Shown: piece by piece, positions 889 to 63,935 of the stretch
How positions within the stretch are numbered: the first letter of the stretch is position 1
How the letters are laid out: each line of letters opens with the position of its first letter
Assembly (NCBI GenBank): GCA_949361645.1
Contig: OX442415.1
Coordinates: 1,104,191 to 1,168,190, forward strand
Direction: 5' to 3'
From: Spongilla lacustris
Lineage: Eukaryota; Porifera; Demospongiae; Spongillida; Spongillidae
Length of the DNA stretch: 64,000 nucleotides
Notes under the pieces: generated by a model
Told to the model about the DNA's origin: nothing
Seen by the model: only the letters and a program-made list of their open reading frames with translations
Databases searched by the model: none
Made by a program: the position numbers and the translations under genes

Positions 889-897
889 ATATTTAAA
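889..897 (+). promoter_or_regulatory. Possible TATA-like element of micro-exon gene copy A
   Basis: An ATATTTAAA motif lies about 55 bp before the proposed start codon at 953. It is retained in copy B in the same relative place. The position suits a TATA box if the 5' UTR is short. No transcription start evidence is available, so this is inference. Confidence 0.3.
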
Positions 898-952: not shown

Positions 953-2941
953 ATGCTGAAGGAACTTCTTCTTTTGACCATACTGGCCTTGTTCGCTAAT
1001 GCCCTGCCCAGCAAGGTATATGACGAGGTATGTCATCAAGGTAGCTATAGGATATAACTACAACTTCCATCCACTCACAGCCGGAGGAGAATAATGAGGA
1101 CAGTGACGTATACGTACCGTATAGCCGCGACGCTATTCTTAACGGTATATAGGAGCTACCCTATACTGAGAGGAAAGGCGTAATCATTTGTCATTCTTAT
1201 TGAAAAGAAATGATCTTCAGTTATTTGAAGGCGAAAAATGCTGGAAATTTGGAGTCTGAGGTAAATTAGTGACTGCGCCTTAATTGTCACCATACATGCA
1301 TGGATATACCATGACTTTGTATCTTTGCTTTCCTTGTCACCATGGGTACGAAAGGGTGCGGTGGTAAGTGCCAATAATGATGTTGCTTTTCCCATTTGTC
1401 TATTAACTATATTATTTACACTGTAGAAGGCAAGTATTAACGACGGTGAATTTCTAATTGCAACTCAACATGCATGACTTCCTTTATACCATCATATATA
1501 CAATACATGCAGCCTGTAAGTAGCAGTGATGTGTATAGCACCTTTTTTATTGCCGTTGTTATATGTGTATATGCATTGCAGGGAGTAAGTATCAGTGATG
1601 TTGAACCTCAATGCACTTTTAAATGCCTACCGGCTTATATTCCGTGAAAATTATGTATATAGGGAGTAAGTAGTAATGATGTTTTATTTCCCATTTCACC
1701 ACACGACTTCTTGTTACCTTGAATGCTGCATGGTTACATCATCGAACATTGTAAAGAGTGTAAGTACCCAGCAGTGACACATGCATCTTCTACAGCAATT
1801 TTTAACCTGGCGTGCATGCATATTCCTCCACTCTAAATTTGAACACTGTAGAACGTAAGTATTAATGACTCAATGTATATTCCATTGCACCTTAAATTAA
1901 CATGTGGATATTTATTCCTTGTCATCATGAACAATGCAGCGGATTGTAAGTTTCTATGATGCGTTACCCATGCATGCATTGCACCTAAATGTGTGTACTC
2001 TTCCGGTACTATTGAAAAATGCAGGATGTAAGTATTACTGTATGATTTTACATTTCTTATTTGACTACTTATATTCAATGTTTCATCATCATCATCATTG
2101 AAATTTTACCAATGAAGCCTGTAAGTATCAATCACCTGTAGTATCTTTCAAAATGAACTTCTTATTCCAACCTTGTGAACATGACTCAATCAGAATGTAA
2201 GATCAATGATTTAGCATTCATTGCCCTTTGAAAAATCTTCATTGCCTTCACGAATACTATAATGAGCAACAGCTTGTAAGTTGTTAGCCTATTTCATAAC
2301 ATGATGCATTACCTTTACTTCTCAATTGTCCCCACAATGCAGATGGTAAGCATTTCATATTGCACGTTAACATGGCTACATACATTCCCTGTTACAACTT
2401 ACACAATTCCAATCAATGCAGAAGGTAGGAATCAATAGTATTTCCCACTGTACCTTAACATTCCAAACTTATATTATTAAATACTTCTGTCATAATCAAT
2501 GCAGTCTGTAAGTGTCAGTGAAGTTACATTTCCCATTGCACCTTATCATTCCTTGTTACATGTACCATGTGGATATTATTATGAACAATGCAGTTGGTAA
2601 GGATCAATAGAGTAGTGCATTATGAACTTTAATTAACATGCTAATTTATTCCATGAACAATACAGGTTGTAAGTATCAATGATGCCGCATATCTTATTGC
2701 ACCATAATTGACTGCCTACTTCATGGATTCTATTATGGAAAATCCAGGGAGTGAGTGTCAGTGACATTGCATTTTTGCACTTTAAGTTGCCCATGTACTG
2801 GTATACCTTATCCCCGTGGAAACTATTATGATCGTAATGCAGAAGGTAAGTTTGTGATTATGATGTTGCATAAAAAGGTTCATTATGAATTTCAATGCCT
2901 TTCATGATTATATGGCATCTTCATTAATTTCACCACAGTGA
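953..2941 (+). CDS. Micro-exon gene, small secreted protein, copy A
   Basis: No family recognised. Exon 1 (953-1027) encodes a signal peptide starting MLKELLLLTILALFANA. Exon 2 is 1081-1144 (acidic, PEENNEDSD, then VYVPYSRDAILN) and exon 3 is 1208-1260. Then come coding micro-exons: 1355-1363 (GAV), 1427-1429 K, 1513-1515 P, 1582-1584 G, 1663-1665 G, 1757-1759 S, 1852-1854 N, 1940-1945 RI, 2025-2027 D, 2118-2120 P, 2194-2196 N, 2273-2275 L, 2343-2345 M, 2422-2424 K, 2505-2507 S, 2594-2596 L, 2666-2668 V, 2748-2750 G, 2843-2845 K. The last piece, 2939-2943, starts with the stop TGA. All junctions keep one frame, giving 86 residues; the single-codon part reads KPGGSNRIDPNLMKSLVGK. Introns are 53-94 nt. 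One donor is GC (1430). Acceptors at 1207, 1354 and 1756 end AAAG and are less certain. Only cDNA can prove the splicing. Confidence 0.65.
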
Positions 2942-2943
2942 CT
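1355..2943 (+). repeat. Degenerate tandem array of acceptor + codon + donor + intron units (copy A)
   Basis: Twenty successive units of about 66-100 bp. Each has an AG acceptor, usually within ATGCAG, then a variable 3-nt exon (once each 9, 6 and 5 nt), then a donor. The donor is a perfect GTAAGT in 14 of 20. Donors are often followed by a conserved ATCARTGATG-like stretch. Unit interiors share blocks such as CCATTGCACCTTA, TTCCTTGT and ATGAACAATGCAG. This suggests the array grew by tandem duplication of an intron carrying one codon, followed by divergence. Confidence 0.8.
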
Positions 2944-11092: not shown

Positions 11093-14000
11093 ATCAAAGT
11101 AAATCGATCATATAATGGAGGAGTGGGAACCCTTAAGTTGTATGGAATAGTAGTAGTTTCCTTGAAGCACTTTATTTGTAATGAGAACAGGCAGTTTTGC
11201 TGCATGCGGCGCTAGTTCAAAAGCTTGCATGCGGTTCAACCGTCATAGCGCGACGTGAACTACAAATAGAGAGAGATTGTCCTCAAAGAATTCATGCACT
11301 GATTCCTTCCGGCAGCAGCAGCATATTTAAACGGCCAATCGTTTAGAGTTGTGCATTGTCTAAAAATTTGCGCCGATCTAGAATGCTGAAGGAACTTCTT
11401 CTTTTGACCATGCTGGCCTTGTTCGTTAATGCCCGGCCCAGCAAGGTATATGACGAGGTATGTCATCAAGGTAGCTATAGGATATAACTACAACTTCCAT
11501 CCACTCACAGCCGGAGGAGAATAATGAGGACAGCGACGTATACGTACCGTATAGCCGCGACGCTATTCTTAACGGTATATAGGAGCTACCCTATACTGAG
11601 AGGAAAGGCGTAATCATTTGTCATTCTTATTGAAAAGAAATGATCTTCAGTTATTTGAAGGCGAAAAATGCTGGAAATTTGGAGTCTGAGGTAAATTAGT
11701 GACTGCGCCTTAATTGTCACCATACATGCATGGATATACCATGACTTTGTATCTTTGCTTTCCTTGTCACCATGGGTACGAAAGGGTGCGGTGGTAAGTG
11801 CCAATAATGATGTTGCTTTTCCCATTTGTCTATTAACTATATTATTTACACTGTAGAAGGCAAGTATTAACGACGGTGAATTTCTAATTGCAACTCAACA
11901 TGCATGACTTCCTTTATACCATCATATATACAATACATGCAGCCTGTAAGTAGCAGTGATGTGTATAGCACCTTTTTTATTGCCGTTGTTATATGTGTAT
12001 ATGCATTGCAGGGAGTAAGTATCAGTGATGTTGAAGCTTCCTCAATGCACTTTTAAATGCCTACCGGCCTATATTCCGTGAAAATTATGTATATAGGGAG
12101 TAAGTAGTAATGATGTTTTATTTCCCATTTCACCACACGACTTCTTGTTACCTTGAATGCTGCATGGTTACATCATCGAACATTGTAAAGAGTGTAAGTA
12201 CCCAGCAGTGACACATGCATTTTCTTCAGCAATTTTTAACCTGGCGTACATGCATACTCCTCCATTCTGAATTTGAACACTGTAGAACGTAAGTCTTAAT
12301 GACTCAATGTATATTCCATTGCACCTTAAATTAACATGTGGATATTTATTCCTTGTCATCATGAACAATGCAGCGGATTGTAAGTTTCTATGATGCGTTA
12401 CCCATGCATGCATTGCACCTAAATGTGTGTACTCTTCCGGTACTATTGAAAAATGCATGCAGGATGTAAGTATTACTGGATGATTTTACATTTCTTATTT
12501 GACTACTTATATTCAATGTTTCATCATCATCATCATTGAAATTTTACCAATGAAGCCTGTAAGTATCAATCACCTGTAGTATCTTTCAAAATGAACTTCT
12601 TATTCCAACCTTGTGAACATGACTCAATCAGAATGTAAGATCAATGATTTAGCATTCATTGCCCTTTGAAAAATCTTCATTGCCTTCACGAATACTATAA
12701 TGAACAACAGCTTGTAAGTTGTTAGCCTACTTCATAACATGACACATTGCCTGTACTTCTCAAATGTCCCCACAATGCAGATGGTAAGCATTTCATATTG
12801 CACGTTAACATGGCTACATACATTCCCTGTTACAACTTACACAATTCCAATCAATGCAGAAGGTAGGAATCAATAGTATTTCCCACTGTACCTTAACATT
12901 CCAAACTTATATTATTAAATACTTCTGTCATAATCAATGCAGTCTGTAAGTGTCAGTGAAGTTACATTTCCCATTGCACCTTATCATTCCTTGTTACATG
13001 TACCATGTGGATATTATTATGAACAATGCAGTTGGTAAGGATCAATAGAGTAGTGCATTATGAACTTTAATTAACATGCCTTAATGAACAATACAGGTTG
13101 TAAGTATCAATGATGTCGCATATCTCATTGCACCATAATTGACTGCCTACGTCATGGATCCTATTATGGAAAATCCAGGGAGTGAGTGTCAGTGACATTG
13201 CATTTTTGCACTTTAAGTTGCCCATGTACTGGTATACCTTGTCCCCGTGGAAACTATTATGATCGTAATGCAGAAGGTAAGTTTGTGATTATGATGTTGC
13301 ATCAAAAGGTTCATTATGAATTTCAATGCCTTTCATGATTATATGGCATCTTCATTAATTTCCCCACAGTGACTGTAAGTTTATGTGAACTAATGGACAT
13401 ATCATTCGTTTGTATTCCTGATGTGATTTTAAATAGTGATTGAAGCCGTTGAAAGAAACTGTTTAACACACTTGTAGCTAGATATGTAGTGACTGCGACT
13501 TCAGTAGTAGTTGTGTGTTGATTTCTGATCATGTTATGAAACATGCATGTGCAGTTGAACAGTGATAATGAGTAAAGTTATTAATAGTGAGAGCTAGATG
13601 TGGAACATGACGTGTTCCGGTACCCCACTGGAACTTTGATTCCACAACTGGAAGCATGGGCAAATAAGCCAAAACATGTGACTGGATGACATGTTGTGTC
13701 ATTTCCTCTAAGCATATAGTGAATCATTGCACTGCTTGTGATTCTCAAGTGCTTGTGTTGCACTGTCCATTAAGTGTGTAAATTCGTCCAGTGATGGGAT
13801 GATTCCTTAATTCTTGCTCAAAGGTATAGCTTTGTAGTGGTGTGTGAGCTCACTGGGAGCTCATGTGGGTGCCCCATAGCAGGGTGGTCCCCACCACAAC
13901 CTGCCTGGGCACCACCACTTGTGGGCACATTCAGCTCCCTTGATGCATCTCCCCATGCATAGGTTGTAGGCTCAACAAATTCACAATTGCGGCAGGTTTC

Positions 14001-31194: not shown

Positions 31195-32406
31195 CTAGTC
31201 ACTATCATTCGAATCATAAGAGTGGGATAGCGATCTACTGCTCCCCGGAGGCGGAGGAGGTTGGGGACGCCCATAGGCAGATGGTTTCATTATTCTCTTG
31301 GCCGCAGCATCAGCTTCAGCCTTGGCTTTATCCATCAGTGGCTGAAGTGATGATGTAATTTCTTCTAGTTTATCTTCCAATAATGACTTCTGCTCTTCTA
31401 ATTTTCCCTCCAATGTTTCGGCCTGCTCCTGTTGACGCTTATCAAATGTTGTTATATGCTTTTGTAACTTGTTCTCCAACAGTCCCATCTGTTCCTGTTG
31501 CTTCTTAATTAATGTCGTCTGCTCTTCCAACTTCTTTATAAACATTAGTTTCATCTCTTTCATTTGTTGTTGGTAAAACTGCTGTTGTTCAGCAAATGCT
31601 TTGGAGCGGAGAGCAGATAAATGTACCTCGCTGTTCTGCTCGTGTTGGACGATCTCGCACCGTGGGGCAACGTGGGAACATCCCAAGGGGGCGTGGACAC
31701 ATGGGACGGGCTCGTTGGGACAATCCCTCCTGTGCGCATCAAGAGTTTGGCGGGTAAGATTTAGAGCTTTGCACTGGCGAGGGCATGCCACGGGAGCGTG
31801 CGGACATATCTCGGTGTGGGCGGACATCTTATTGTATGCTGTGGACACTTCACATGACGGATGAGGACAGCCGGTCATTCGAAGCTTGCAGTGGTGTGCG
31901 AGATGATCGACGAGATCGTGGCGACTCAGACGAACATCGCACGTATCTCGCTCGCTGACACCTTTTGCTTTGGATTTGAAGTTCGGGCAGCTCTGGAGAC
32001 AATGAAACTGATTGTGTGTGTCCATCTCTCCTCGAGGGACAAGCGCAGCGCAATCCTTTGCGGAGCACGTGATCGGCTCATGAGGACAGTCTGTGTCTAG
32101 ATGGTCGTCCAATCGACCGCACGTTCCCTTCCACTTGCATTTATCGTGCACACACAGAACGTCCAGAGCAGATACGCGAGCTGCAACAAAGGCAGAGGGT
32201 ATAGGCGCGGTAAGAGGTTCTCTACAAACAGGACAGACTGGATTTCGTCGCAAGCTTTCCGTGAGACAGTCGGAACAAAACAGATGGGCTCCAGATTGGC
32301 ACGTGACTGGTGAGCGGCACACTTCGAAGCATACGAGGCAGTGGTAGGCTTCACTACTGGCTTGATTGCAGAACTTGCTGGCAGGAAAACCACCTCGCCT
32401 TGCCAT
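31195..32406 (-). CDS. RING-finger TRAF-like protein, intronless, 403 aa
   Basis: A single uninterrupted frame. Residues about 23-63 form a C3HC4 RING (CLVCFEVCRSPVTCQ, HLFCSDCL, PVCPVCREPL). Residues about 80-260 carry a series of TRAF-type zinc fingers (for example CPHEPITCSAKDCAALVPRG, CPHAPVACPRQCKA, CPNEPVPCVHAPLGCSH). Then comes a long Gln/Lys/Glu coiled coil (about 270-375) with repeats such as KLEEQKSLLEDKLEEI, and a Pro/Ser-rich tail. There is no MATH/TRAF-C domain. The likely role is a RING E3 ubiquitin ligase that oligomerises through the coiled coil (family inference). Lack of introns in an intron-rich neighbourhood suggests an ancestral retrocopy or an intronless family. Close relatives are at 54913 and, broken, at 42995. 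Confidence 0.88.
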   Translation of the reverse strand: MARRGGFPASKFCNQASSEAYHCLVCFEVCRSPVTCQSGAHLFCSDCLTESLRRNPVCPVCREPLTAPIPSAFVAARVSALDVLCVHDKCKWKGTCGRLDDHLDTDCPHEPITCSAKDCAALVPRGEMDTHNQFHCLQSCPNFKSKAKGVSERDTCDVRLSRHDLVDHLAHHCKLRMTGCPHPSCEVSTAYNKMSAHTEICPHAPVACPRQCKALNLTRQTLDAHRRDCPNEPVPCVHAPLGCSHVAPRCEIVQHEQNSEVHLSALRSKAFAEQQQFYQQQMKEMKLMFIKKLEEQTTLIKKQQEQMGLLENKLQKHITTFDKRQQEQAETLEGKLEEQKSLLEDKLEEITSSLQPLMDKAKAEADAAAKRIMKPSAYGRPQPPPPPGSSRSLSHSYDSNDSD

Positions 32407-33330
32407 ACTGCGGGGGCGGCGGAAGTGGGGGGGGTAATACTATGAATATATAATGAGTGGGCGTGGTAGATAGTGGCTGCGCATGCGAAAATGAACCGCT
32501 TGTTGCGTAGCTACTACTTTTAAAATAGTTCATCCGATTCCCGTTCTCTTTGATAGTAATAATATTTCTGCTCGGTAAAGTTGGGGAGGGGGGGGGGACA
32601 TAATCAATCAAGTTCTATTTTTTTAATTACGACAAGTAGCATGTTATACATGTAGTGAACCCACATATTGTACCTTTCCTATAATTTATGTAGTTCATGT
32701 ATGAACAAAAATAATTTTTACACGTTTCTTATTGTATGGCAGGCTTAGCCTGACTTTGATACGAGCCAACCACGGGCACTCCTGTCTCGAGCAGGATCAT
32801 CTGTGGAAGATCCATAGAACTTCTTGTAATATTAGTCCTTTTGTGTGTAATGTATATGTGTGTTAATAATAATAAAAACGTTTCTTAAAAGTAAAAAATA
32901 TCTTGTTTCACTACATTTTTCCCCTATTCATACGTTGCGTTCATAAGAGCAAACGAAGATAGAACTGAAGGGCAACCTTGGAATACTACCCATTTATATA
33001 GTGCAATGTCACATCAAACAATTTCTTGCTAGCATCACTGAACTGGCATGTGAGGTTATTCTGGAAGGCAAGGGGATCCCTAAAAAATGAAGTTGTAGTG
33101 GTAGTGATGGAACAAAATATTATGCTCAGACCACAAATGCCCAACCAGAGCATCTTGGTATTTTAATGCCATTTCCCGCCTGACACACTTTTCATTAAAC
33201 TGCGCTCTGGGTCACTTGCTACCAAAACTGGTTCATCATGCAGGATCAACCTAAGCATAGCCCATCATGTCATACACAAGAACACCCATCACAACTATCC
33301 CCTCACGGGATTCAAAGGGCATTATTTTGT
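32407..33330. other. Intergenic region upstream of the TRAF-like gene
   Basis: A GC-rich promoter-like stretch (about 32410-32435) lies directly before the start codon. Further out is AT-rich sequence with short repeats near 32870-33250. No coding region recognised. Confidence 0.45.
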
Positions 33331-54854: not shown

Positions 54855-54912
54855 ATCCAACCTACTGTCCAGCCGCAAACACCTGTGCTCCCAAGGCCTC
54901 CGTACCACGTGC

Positions 54913-55893
54913 ATGGCAAGGCGAGGTGGTTTTCCTGCCAGCAAGTTCTGCGATCAAGCAATTAGTGAAGCCTACCACTGCCTCGTATGCTTCGAAGTGT
55001 GCCGCTCGCCAGTCACGTGCCAATCTGAAGGAGCCCATCTGTTTTGTTCGGACTGCCTCAAGAAAACCCTGCGACTAAATCCAGTCTGTCCAGTTTGCAG
55101 AGAACGTCTTACCGCGCCTATACCCTCTCCCTTTGTGGCAGCTCGTGTATCTGCTCTGGACGTTCTGTGTGTGCACGATAAATGCAAGTGGAAGGGAACG
55201 TGCGGTCGATTGGACGTCCATCTAGACACAGACTGTCCTCATGAGCCCATCACGTGCTCTGTAAATGATTGCGCTGCGCTTGTTCCTCGAGGAGAGATGG
55301 ACACACACAATCAGTTTCATTGTCTTCAAAGCTGCCCGAACTCCAAAGGTGTCAGCGAGGAAGATACGTGCGATGTTCGTCTGAGTCGCCACGATCTCGT
55401 CGATCATCTCGCACACAACTGCAAACTTCGAATGACCCGCTGTCCTCATCCGTCATGTGAAGTGTCCACAGCATACAATAAGATGTCAGCCCACACCGAG
55501 ATATGTCCGCACGCTCCCGTGGCATGCCCTCGCCAGTGCAAAGCTCTAAATCTTACCCGCCAAACTCTTGATGCGCACAGGAGGGATTGTCCCAACGAGC
55601 CCGTCCCATGTGTCCACGCCCCCTTGGGATGTTCCCACGTTGCCCCACGGTGCGAGATCGTCCAACACGAGCAGAACAGCGAGGTACATTTATCTGTTCT
55701 CCGCTCCAAAGCATTTGCTGAACAACAACAAATTTACCAACAACAAATGGGTGAGATGAGAATTATGTTGGAAGAGCAGACCACATTAATTAAGAAGCAA
55801 CAGGAACAGATGAGCGAGTTGGAGGCATTATTTAAGCAGAAACTAGACGAGATTCCGAATATAGTGTATACAGCTATGTCTGATAGATGGTGA
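54913..55893 (+). CDS. RING-finger TRAF-like protein, intronless, 326 aa
   Basis: Paralogue of 31195-32406. RING at about 24-64 (CLVCFEVCRSPVTCQ, LFCSDCLKKTL, CPVCRERL), TRAF-type zinc fingers to about 250, then a shorter coiled coil (AEQQQIYQQQMGEMRIMLEE, KKQQEQMSELEALFKQKLDE) and a different C-terminus (NIVYTAMSDRW). All RING Cys/His ligands are present. The KLEEQ repeats and Pro-rich tail of the 403-aa relative are missing. Likely an E3 ligase (family inference). It is followed in opposite orientation by NSMCE3. The same pair, broken, is at 42995-46671. Confidence 0.87.
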   Translation: MARRGGFPASKFCDQAISEAYHCLVCFEVCRSPVTCQSEGAHLFCSDCLKKTLRLNPVCPVCRERLTAPIPSPFVAARVSALDVLCVHDKCKWKGTCGRLDVHLDTDCPHEPITCSVNDCAALVPRGEMDTHNQFHCLQSCPNSKGVSEEDTCDVRLSRHDLVDHLAHNCKLRMTRCPHPSCEVSTAYNKMSAHTEICPHAPVACPRQCKALNLTRQTLDAHRRDCPNEPVPCVHAPLGCSHVAPRCEIVQHEQNSEVHLSVLRSKAFAEQQQIYQQQMGEMRIMLEEQTTLIKKQQEQMSELEALFKQKLDEIPNIVYTAMSDRW

Positions 55894-62725: not shown

Positions 62726-62739
62726 GTACACGTGTGTTC

Positions 62740-63935
62740 AGCATACCCTTGGATACTCACCCTGTATAGTCGTGTGTTCAGTATACCCTTGGATACTCAC
62801 CCTGTATAGTCTTGTGTTCAGTAGACCCTTGGATACTCACCCTGTATAGTCTTGTGTTCAGTAGACCCTTGGATACTCACCCTGTATAGCCTTGTATTCA
62901 GTAGACCCTTGGATACTCACCCTGTATAGTCTTGTATTCAGTAGACCCTTGGATACTCACTCTGTACCCTTGGATACTCACCCTGTACCCTTGGATACTC
63001 ACCCTGTATAGTCTTGTGTTCAGTACACCCTTGGATACTCACCCTGTATACTTTTGTGTTCAGTAGACTCACCCTGTATAGTTATGTGCTCAGTAGACCC
63101 TTGGATACTCACCCTGTACCCTTGGATACTCACCCTGTACCCTTGGATACTCACCCTGTATGGTCGTGTGTTCAGTAGACCCTTGGATACTCACCCTGTA
63201 TAGTCTTGTGTTCAGTATACCCTTGGATACTCACCCTGTACCCTTGGATACTCACCCTGTATAATCTTGTGTTCATTAGACCCTTGGATACTCACCCTGT
63301 ATAGTTATGTGCTCAGTAGACCCTTGGATACTCACCCTGTACCCTTGGATACTCACCCTGTATAGTCTTGTGTTCAGTAGACCCTTGGATACTCACCCTG
63401 TATGGTCTTGTGTTCAGTAGACCCTTGGATACTCACCCTGTATACTCTTGTGTTCATTAGACCCTTGGATACTCATCCTGTATAGCCTTGTGTTCAGTAC
63501 ACCCTTGGATACTCACCCTGTATACTCTTGTGTTCAGTAGACCCTTGGATACTCACCCTATATAGTCTTGTGTTCATTAGACCCTTGGATACTCACCCTG
63601 TACCCTTGGATACTCACCCTGTACCCTTGGATTATACTCACTCTGTACCCTTGGATACTCACCCTGTACCCTTGGATACTCACCCTGTATAGTCTTGTGT
63701 TCAATAGACCCTTGGATACTCACCCTGTATACTTTTGTGTTCAGTATACCCTTGGATACTCACCCTGTATAGTCTTGTGTTCAGTATACCCTTGGATACT
63801 CACCCTGTATAGTCTTGTGTTCAGTATACCCTTGGATACTCACCCTGTATAGTCTTGTGTTCAGTAGACCCTTGGATACTCACCCTGTATAGTCTTGTGT
63901 TCAGTAGACCCTTGGATACTCACCTTGTATAGTCT
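62740..63935. repeat. Compound minisatellite, ~1.2 kb, in the last visible PXK intron
   Basis: Units of about 39 bp (TAGTCTTGTGTTCAGTAGACCCTTGGATACTCACCCTGTA) alternate with a 21-bp shortened unit (CCCTTGGATACTCACCCTGTA). More than 25 units in irregular order. No spacer diversity of CRISPR type; it is a eukaryotic intronic satellite. Confidence 0.93.

What the first reader, a model, noticed from the sequence alone, without database searches (positions are those of the whole stretch)
953..2943. A gene whose C-terminal peptide is spelled out one codon per exon
Seen directly: twenty consecutive acceptor-N-donor ladders within 1.6 kb. The enclosed exons are 9, 3, 3, 3, 3, 3, 3, 6, then 3 nt eleven times, then 5 nt. 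All introns between them are 63-93 nt, normal for this genome. Joined to three ordinary exons, including a clear signal peptide, they keep one frame and give an 86-residue secreted protein. The only stop (TGA) is the first triplet of the last tiny exon. Symmetric micro-exon genes are known, notably in schistosomes, but a run of single-codon exons of this length is outside anything I know. ORF finders and most spliced aligners would miss it completely.
Basis: partly seen in the sequence, partly recalled or inferred. Interest (0 to 1): 0.97.

Follow-up and report, generated by a model that had tools for sequence, protein, structure and literature searches.

The report
Sponge peptide genes, one codon per exon
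A genome matching the freshwater sponge Spongilla lacustris carries dozens of related genes in which a conserved leader is followed by long runs of three-base segments framed by splice sites, so that each amino acid of a predicted secreted peptide would be spelled by its own exon, a structure that would likely let whole amino acids be added, lost or swapped without breaking the reading frame.

Summary
The ladder is real, and the gene belongs to a large family. The window gene (953-2943) joins as described: 23 exons, 86 codons, ending LVGK-stop; a 98% identical copy lies at 11383-13374. Genome-wide, the unit acceptor-N(0-30)-donor occurs 215 times (reversed pattern 0); of 100 listed, 98 enclose 3 nt and 2 enclose 6. 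Thirty other loci hold 31 arrays: 647 of 692 strong units enclose exactly 3 nt. In 24 of the 30 a related signal-peptide leader was found. Stops are 3 of 647 triplets (26.8 expected), each the last-but-one strong unit. Six of 16 models built without a frame rule run from leader to stop in frame, one through 41 consecutive one-codon exons. Cores are hypervariable, often Pro/Gly- or Cys-rich; 13 of 23 array ends read Gly-Lys-stop, an amidation signal. In two of three paralogue pairs triplets changed faster than introns. It likely works as a codon-cassette gene: homologous ~88-nt introns around single codons would let recombination add, remove or exchange residues in frame. No RNA was examined; splicing and translation are inferred. 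It meets a published micro-exon gene definition, at an extreme not found in the papers searched.

The parts
890..897 (+). TATA-like box (TATTTAAA), 63 bases before the ATG
   Evidence: TATA-like box at -47 to -69 in 15 of 19 family leaders
953..1027 (+). exon 1, predicted signal peptide (MLKELLLLTILALFANALPSKVYDE)
   Evidence: conserved leader exon in the family
1081..1144 (+). exon 2, acidic propeptide
1208..1260 (+). exon 3, conserved propeptide (E)MIFSYLKAKNAGNLESE
1355..1363 (+). 9-nt exon, GAV
1427..1429 (+). one-codon exon AAG (K), GC donor downstream
1513..2845 (+). array of 17 micro-exons: 16 of 3 nt and one of 6 nt (1940-1945), spelling PGGSNRIDPNLMKSLVGK
   Evidence: exons start at 1513, 1582, 1663, 1757, 1852, 1940, 2025, 2118, 2194, 2273, 2343, 2422, 2505, 2594, 2666, 2748, 2843
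2748..2845 (+). last two codons GGA and AAG: Gly-Lys before the stop, a predicted C-terminal amidation signal
   Evidence: same ending in 13 of 23 array ends read
2939..2943 (+). 5-nt exon TGACT with the stop codon
3006..3060 (+). predicted start of the 3' untranslated exon (acceptor before TGATTGAAG; right end arbitrary), resembling the TGATTTTAGG exon of relatives
   Evidence: by eye; weak
11383..13374 (+). tandem copy of the whole gene, 98% identical, same 23 exons and same 22-residue C-terminal part; three differences in exon 1 alter the signal peptide

Best explanation
The window holds one member of a family of genes for predicted secreted peptides, in which the mature peptide would be written one codon per exon. 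Three ordinary exons give a conserved signal peptide and acidic propeptide; then come tens of 3-nt exons separated by homologous introns of about 88 nt; then a stop exon, often right after Gly-Lys. Shown by sequence: the leader, the arrays, exon length 3, stop avoidance, in-frame models, variable triplets inside conserved splice sites. Inferred: the spliceosome likely removes the short introns one after another, so that each step adds one codon to the growing leader exon and no 3-nt exon needs to be recognised alone; the product would be secreted, trimmed at the propeptide and in many members amidated or disulphide-bonded. The unit (intron plus codon) is a cassette: unequal exchange or conversion between the homologous introns would add, delete or copy whole codons without frameshift, and selection for new peptides would keep the triplets diverse. 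Likely role: diversified defensive or signalling peptides of a sessile animal (role is the weakest step).
For: Window gene joins in frame. Leader exon 1 or 2 found in 24 of the 30 array loci; about 39 leader loci in all (my merging). Exon length: 98 of 100 listed exact matches enclose 3 nt and 2 enclose 6, reversed control 0; 647 of 692 strong units are 3 nt and 668 are non-zero multiples of 3. Stops: 3 of 647 triplets, 26.8 expected, at units 33/34, 7/8 and 25/26 (Poisson 8e-9 under independence). Paths chosen by splice-site scores, with no frame rule, reach the terminal exon in frame with no internal stop in L003, L010, L011, L014, L022, L024: 178 micro-exons. Unit columns: splice sites agree in 90-100% of units, other intron columns in 48-98% (ungapped, falling with distance), triplet positions in 31, 38 and 66%; the first two are the most variable of all columns. 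Paralogues: triplets differ at 11/107 and 14/81 bases, introns at 115/3154 and 56/2396, splice sites at 3/318 and 2/243; 14 of 16 changed codons alter the residue. Codon-block duplication: 300-nt stretches 627 bases apart, 98% identical, inside L021, matching the repeated AAPKTLV. Gly-Lys-stop in 13 of 23 array ends. TATA-like box in 15 of 19 leaders. Leader relatives in Ephydatia muelleri.
Against: No RNA or peptide evidence was examined. Exon length 3 can be inherited with a duplicated unit rather than kept by selection. In one search the terminal exon was sought by a motif that begins with a stop codon, so ending at a stop is by construction, and arriving in frame follows when the units are 3 nt; the informative part is the absence of internal stops. 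Of its 16 starts, six gave no closed path (W1, W2, L009, L015, L019, L029), L034 and L032 came out of frame, L016 and L021 contain internal stops (in L021 at the array end); the starting donors for L015, L016, L032 and L034 were misplaced guesses. One of three paralogue pairs (L015/L016) has 0 of 39 exon changes against 57 of 1160 in introns (all three: 16 of 74 codons changed, 7.2 expected, P 0.002), and gain or loss of units in L025/L026 may be counted as substitution. Some units have lost the AG acceptor (L021, L034), and L023 has lost its ATG. No codon-flank linkage between loci (153 of 500 shuffles reach the observed value), so copying of cassettes between genes is not shown. In 6 of the 30 array loci no leader exon 1 or 2 was found. 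The Ephydatia models P0001-P0003 stop within about a dozen residues after exon 3.
Confidence: 0.87

Rival explanations
1. Non-coding tandem repeat: the arrays are a minisatellite of a 91-nt unit that carries splice-like sequences, skipped as one long intron between the leader and a terminal exon; the triplets are neutral spacers.
For: Units are tandem and homologous at about 91-nt spacing; length 3 could be inherited with the unit; annotated Ephydatia relatives end near exon 3.
Against: Stops 3 of 647 against 26.8 expected, each last-but-one in its array; 178 micro-exons of six closed models hold no internal stop; splice sites are the most conserved columns and the first two triplet positions the most variable; 14 of 16 changed codons alter residues; coherent peptides such as six-cysteine cores and GPP runs.
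Confidence: 0.06
2. Variable splicing library: the exons are real, but subsets are skipped, so one gene makes many peptides that differ by single residues, as proposed for flatworm micro-exon genes.
For: Almost every unit is symmetric, so a skip keeps frame; the introns are homologous; units with lost acceptors occur within arrays. PMC7653826 (passages) states this logic for micro-exon genes.
Against: Splice sites are strong and uniform, which suggests constitutive inclusion; nothing here measures skipping. It can be true together with the best explanation.
Confidence: 0.3
3. Introner origin: the arrays arose when a mobile intron inserted between the codons of an existing peptide gene, not by duplication of intron-plus-codon units.
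For: Introns are more alike than the codons between them, and codon and flank are not linked between loci.
Against: Insertion at every codon boundary and always in phase 0 is implausible; of the isolated exact matches the two fetched lie in degenerate or partial ladders, so the unit was not seen dispersed through unrelated genes; block duplication of codons with introns is seen in L021.
Confidence: 0.12

Closest known systems
Micro-exon genes (MEG) of schistosomes and tapeworms
   Same: Signal peptide, many consecutive symmetric micro-exons, secreted product, hard for annotation (PMC10526429 and PMC7653826, passages).
   Different: Schistosome exons are given as 6-81 bp, most of 15 bp (3-81 bp in the abstract of PMC10526429), with introns of 0.1-5 kb. 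Here the typical exon is 3 nt in runs of up to 41 (49 micro-exons in L022), introns are about 88 nt and homologous to each other (mean identity 74-95% within six arrays), the core is hypervariable, and no hit of the leader search bears a non-sponge name.
Cone-snail toxin precursors and similar venom or defence peptide superfamilies (recalled)
   Same: Constant signal and propeptide, hypervariable mature part, Cys-rich frameworks, amidation signals.
   Different: No sequence relation found: Pfam gave no hit over cut-off for two precursors and two cores had no match among PDB sequences. A codon-per-exon layout is not known to me there.
Host-made ribosomal peptides of sponges: proline-rich macrocyclic peptides, barrettides, asteropsins, halichondamide A
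   Same: Thought to be sponge-encoded short Pro-rich or Cys-rich peptides (PMC11382151, part 1 of 3 read); cores such as RPPHIPPIPPIPGK and the Cys-rich ones look alike in kind.
   Different: Relation untested; the genome paper on the macrocyclic peptides was not held, so its gene structures could not be compared.
Isolated 1-3 nt micro-exons of plants and vertebrates; recursive splice sites
   Same: Spliceosomes can include an exon of 1 nt (PMC8831610, passages); stepwise splicing resembles recursive splicing (PMC13149111, passages).
   Different: The passages seen describe single micro-exons or two neighbours; recursive sites enclose 0 nt, here 3 nt.

Membership tests
Micro-exon gene as defined in PMC7653826 | at least seven exons | tested here: met
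   23 predicted exons in the window gene
Micro-exon gene as defined in PMC7653826 | exons under 70 nt and divisible by three make up at least half, with a run of at least four | tested here: met
   19 of 23 predicted exons, in one run: one 9-nt, seventeen 3-nt and one 6-nt exon
Micro-exon gene as defined in PMC7653826 | exon structure taken from an annotation rather than predicted by eye | not testable with these tools
   no annotation or RNA data of this genome held
Flatworm MEG by descent | sequence relation to schistosome or tapeworm MEG proteins | tested here: not met
   profile search A1: 17 hits; one is named Ephydatia muelleri, three bear Em gene ids as used for that species in PMC7385117, 13 carry no name
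Sponge proline-rich macrocyclic peptide precursors | repeated recognition sequence and core elements | not tested
   reference sequences not held
Introner elements | near-identical introns dispersed in unrelated genes | tested here: inconclusive
   most listed matches cluster in arrays (both lists capped); two of the isolated exact matches were fetched: L045 lies in a degenerate array, L046 in a partial ladder
Amidated secreted peptides | C-terminal Gly-Lys (or Gly-Arg-Lys) before stop | tested here: met
   for the window gene and 12 others: 13 of 23 array ends read Gly-Lys-stop, 1 Gly-Arg-Lys-stop; in 4 of the other 9 no stop was located
Amidated secreted peptides | amidating enzyme in the genome | tested here: inconclusive
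   type II copper monooxygenase domains present but these also occur in other enzymes
Recursive splicing | zero-length exon, AG directly followed by GT | tested here: not met
   6 of 692 strong units have length 0, 647 have 3

The most novel reading that the evidence does not exclude
A gene architecture in which the unit of duplication, loss and exchange is a single codon: homologous introns frame each codon, so peptides evolve by inserting, deleting and swapping whole residues in frame, giving a nerveless animal a fast-changing arsenal or signalling set of secreted peptides, spliced one codon at a time along tens of steps.
Probability: 0.6. Interest if true: 0.97.

Novelty: new variant of a known kind. 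Interest (0 to 1): 0.94.

Why it matters
If the arrays are spliced as predicted, spliceosomes routinely join tens of consecutive 3-nt exons, far beyond the isolated cases in the passages read here, and recognition across the exon cannot be needed. It also shows a way for protein evolution to work in whole-codon steps, and it exposes a family of predicted peptides that annotation is likely to miss: leader relatives in Ephydatia are modelled as ending near exon 3. It bears on whether sponges make processed, amidated peptides; PMC9004410 (passages) reports an amidation site in sponge phoenixin precursors.

Tried and rejected
Exact unit pattern in viral contigs and genome contigs: 0 matches each. 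Pfam for two precursors (no hit over cut-off; one weak hit, Defensin_propep, E 0.16); PDB sequences for two cores (none). Test for codon-flank linkage as a sign of cassettes copied between genes: not significant (153 of 500 shuffles). A first search for signal-peptide exons by hydrophobicity recovered the leader only in L002, the window's second copy, because its donor rule was too strict; blastn with exons read by eye succeeded. Closed models failed or were faulty for 10 of 16 starts (told under evidence against); an earlier, stricter version closed 3 of 13 (L014, L022, L024). Papers: searches listed no description of single-codon exon arrays or of this family (lists capped at 20); only papers named by id in this report, and PMC7821500 (passages), were opened, all as passages except part 1 of 3 of PMC11382151.

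Full report
What was checked. The finding describes twenty tiny exons inside 1.6 kb. I read the region, listed acceptor-N-donor sites and joined the exons. The result is as stated: 23 exons, 263 nt, 86 residues (signal peptide, acidic stretch, EMIFSYLKAKNAGNLESE, GAV, K, PGGSNRIDPNLMKSLVGK), TGA as first triplet of the last 5-nt exon. One donor is GC. A second full copy at 11383-13374 is 98% identical; between the copies 0 of 62 micro-exon bases, 4 of 201 bases of the larger exons and 26 of 1721 intron bases differ, too few to prove anything alone.

Where it comes from. The own genome has 248.56 Mb and contigs C2-C5 of 22.15, 17.78, 13.56 and 11.34 Mb; Table 2 of the Spongilla lacustris genome note lists the same four lengths (PMC12141999, passages; chromosome 1 is 31.14 Mb there and 31.13 Mb here). 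I take the host to be Spongilla lacustris, a freshwater sponge (lineage). Leader relatives fit: one is named Ephydatia muelleri and three bear Em gene ids, the form used for that species in PMC7385117 (passages).

The family. A DNA search with the gene gave 268 matches, those listed mostly to the array part and grouped in arrays on many contigs; only 40 of 85 first-look candidates were scored, so this is a lower bound. I fetched 20 regions of 9.9 kb, then 7, 5 and 2 smaller ones. A scan that allows 0 to 30 nt between acceptor and donor found 475 of 484 cores with exactly 3 nt (some loci overlap). On 30 loci chosen to avoid overlaps, with chains of at least five strong units, 31 arrays hold 692 strong units: 647 of 3 nt, 17 of 6, 2 of 9, 1 of 12, 1 of 21, 6 of 0, and 18 of 2, 7, 10, 11, 14, 23 or 28 nt; several of the odd ones look like register choices (GGT followed by GTAA) or the tail of exon 3. 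One block shuffle gave none. In the whole genome the exact consensus pattern with a free gap of 0-30 nt occurs 215 times, reversed control 0; 100 places are listed, 98 with 3 nt and 2 with 6.

The leader. Searches showed by eye that two arrays follow three ordinary exons like those of the window. blastn with these exons found exon 1 upstream and on the same strand in many loci. A protein search with the leader gave 42 matches, which I merge to 29 loci; ten more come (two window copies, L010, L011, L012, L018, L024, L025, L026, L027): about 39 leader loci. Of the 30 array loci, 24 have exon 1 or 2; L013, L017, L020, L028, L043 and L044 do not (L013 has an exon-3-like match). In L003, L009, L010, L011, L014, L019, L021, L022, L024 and L029 the three exons can be joined in an open frame that enters the array in phase 0 (frame rule applied there); of the other 5 tried, L016, L023 and L034 gave no model and L032 and L035 no start. 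L023 lacks its ATG. A TATA-like box stands 47-69 bases before the ATG in 15 of 19 leaders.

Coding or not. Four tests, none resting on the window alone. (1) Stops: 3 of 647 triplets against 26.8 expected from position-specific base frequencies (P about 8e-9 under independence); with duplicates removed 1 of 406 against 13.9. Each of the three is the last-but-one strong unit of its array. (2) Closed models: a path from the leader donor through micro-exons to a terminal exon, chosen by splice-site scores without a frame rule, is in frame and free of internal stops in L003 (14 units), L010 (41), L011 (40), L014 (24), L022 (49) and L024 (10), 178 units in all. The terminal exon was sought by a motif beginning with a stop, so only the lack of internal stops is informative. 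Of 16 starts, six had no closed path, L034 and L032 were out of frame, L016 and L021 had internal stops; four starting donors (L015, L016, L032, L034) were misplaced. (3) Column variability: triplet positions agree with their commonest base in 31, 38 and 66% of 489 units, splice sites in 90-100%, other intron columns in 48-98%, falling with distance because the alignment is ungapped. (4) Paralogues: L010/L011 11 of 107 exon bases differ against 115 of 3154 intron bases; L025/L026 14 of 81 against 56 of 2396; L015/L016 0 of 39 against 57 of 1160; 14 of 16 changed codons change the residue. Codon level for three pairs: 16 of 74 against 7.2 expected, P 0.002. Caveat: gain and loss of units can look like substitution in L025/L026.

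What the cores look like. Read one codon per exon: RPPHIPPIPPIPGK (L003), GAPGAAPKTLVAAPKTLVWTLPLWPFLVWG (L021), RRCPSHCFPDCCGPDPCFDIQCPPECCGCPPAGEGCGPRGK (L010), CDPSSDCLADCQILPRPGCYAKCC (L014), runs of GPP (L022), WWWHIPY followed by 16 Gly and Lys (L041), YENGWEYNRLADLFCKKWYSKDCCAVIQKGKSKGCAKCDNSGGRGCG (L018, some exons of 6 or 9 nt). Of 23 array ends read, 13 are Gly-Lys-stop: window, its copy, L003, L009, L010, L011, L015, L016, L017, L022, L035, L040, L041 (L009, L015, L040 and L041 by eye; L009 passes over a degenerate unit). L032 is Gly-Arg-Lys-stop. L014, L021, L023, L024 and L043 end otherwise; in L025, L026, L027 and L042 the array ends in Cys codons and I located no stop. Gly-Lys-stop is a usual signal for C-terminal amidation (established knowledge). 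Copper monooxygenase domains of the amidating type or its relatives are present.

How it likely works. Inferred: short introns with strong uniform sites favour recognition across the intron. If intron 1 goes first, the leader exon gains three bases and the next GTAAGT becomes its donor, so splicing could ratchet along the array and no 3-nt exon need be held from both sides at once. Because the introns are homologous (mean identity 74-95% within six arrays), unequal exchange could move whole codons. Evidence for block moves: 300-nt stretches 627 bases apart at 98% in L021, which repeat AAPKTLV, and an excess of near-identical introns three units apart in L022 (8 of 39 at lag 3 against 2 of 41 at lag 1). 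No linkage of codon with flank between loci was seen, so exchange between genes is not shown and point change under selection may do most of the work. In micro-exons the third base is T in 66% and C in 2.5%, a bias I do not explain; splicing needs may cause it.

What is known. Flatworm micro-exon genes are the nearest kind (PMC10526429 and PMC7653826, passages), and the window gene meets the latter paper's definition on its predicted structure. Exon sizes given for schistosomes are 6-81 bp, mostly 15 (3-81 in the abstract). One-nucleotide exons are confirmed singly in plants (PMC8831610, passages). Two 3-nt exons in a fungal gene are mentioned in PMC5639578 (passage). Sponge-made ribosomal peptides are discussed in PMC11382151 (part 1 of 3); the PNAS paper on proline-rich macrocyclic peptides (recalled) was not held, so I cannot exclude that such gene structures are described there or in other unheld papers. 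Ten searches listed nothing of this sort.

Verdict. I rate it a new variant of a known kind (micro-exon gene) because it meets that definition, though the homologous one-codon cassettes set it apart.

Noticed in passing
window 31195-32439 (-) and 54856-55893 (+): Two RING/TRAF-type zinc-finger ORFs of one family; among 51 relatives of the second one is named Ephydatia muelleri and several bear Em ids.
   Followed up: partly
window 62733-63935: Forty-base satellite, about 30 copies; it gives the only spurious micro-exon chain of the window, with many 1-nt pieces.
   Followed up: partly
L021, L034 (array units with CAA before the codon): Single units in which the AG acceptor reads AA, which would drop that codon; they look like decaying cassettes.
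   Followed up: no
L023 3917-4916: Leader without its ATG followed by a seven-unit array ending in TGA: likely a dead copy.
   Followed up: partly
L031 (C1:29740000-29743500): A leader locus whose acidic second exon is repeated in tandem several times, so the propeptide too may vary by exon duplication.
   Followed up: no
micro-exons of the loci fetched: One codon dominates for some residues (CCT for Pro 73 of 74, TGT for Cys 42 of 42 in the non-redundant set) and third-base C is nearly absent.
   Followed up: partly
P0001-P0003 (Ephydatia muelleri gene models by their ids): Annotated relatives end within about a dozen residues after leader exon 3, as if further exons were missed.
   Followed up: partly
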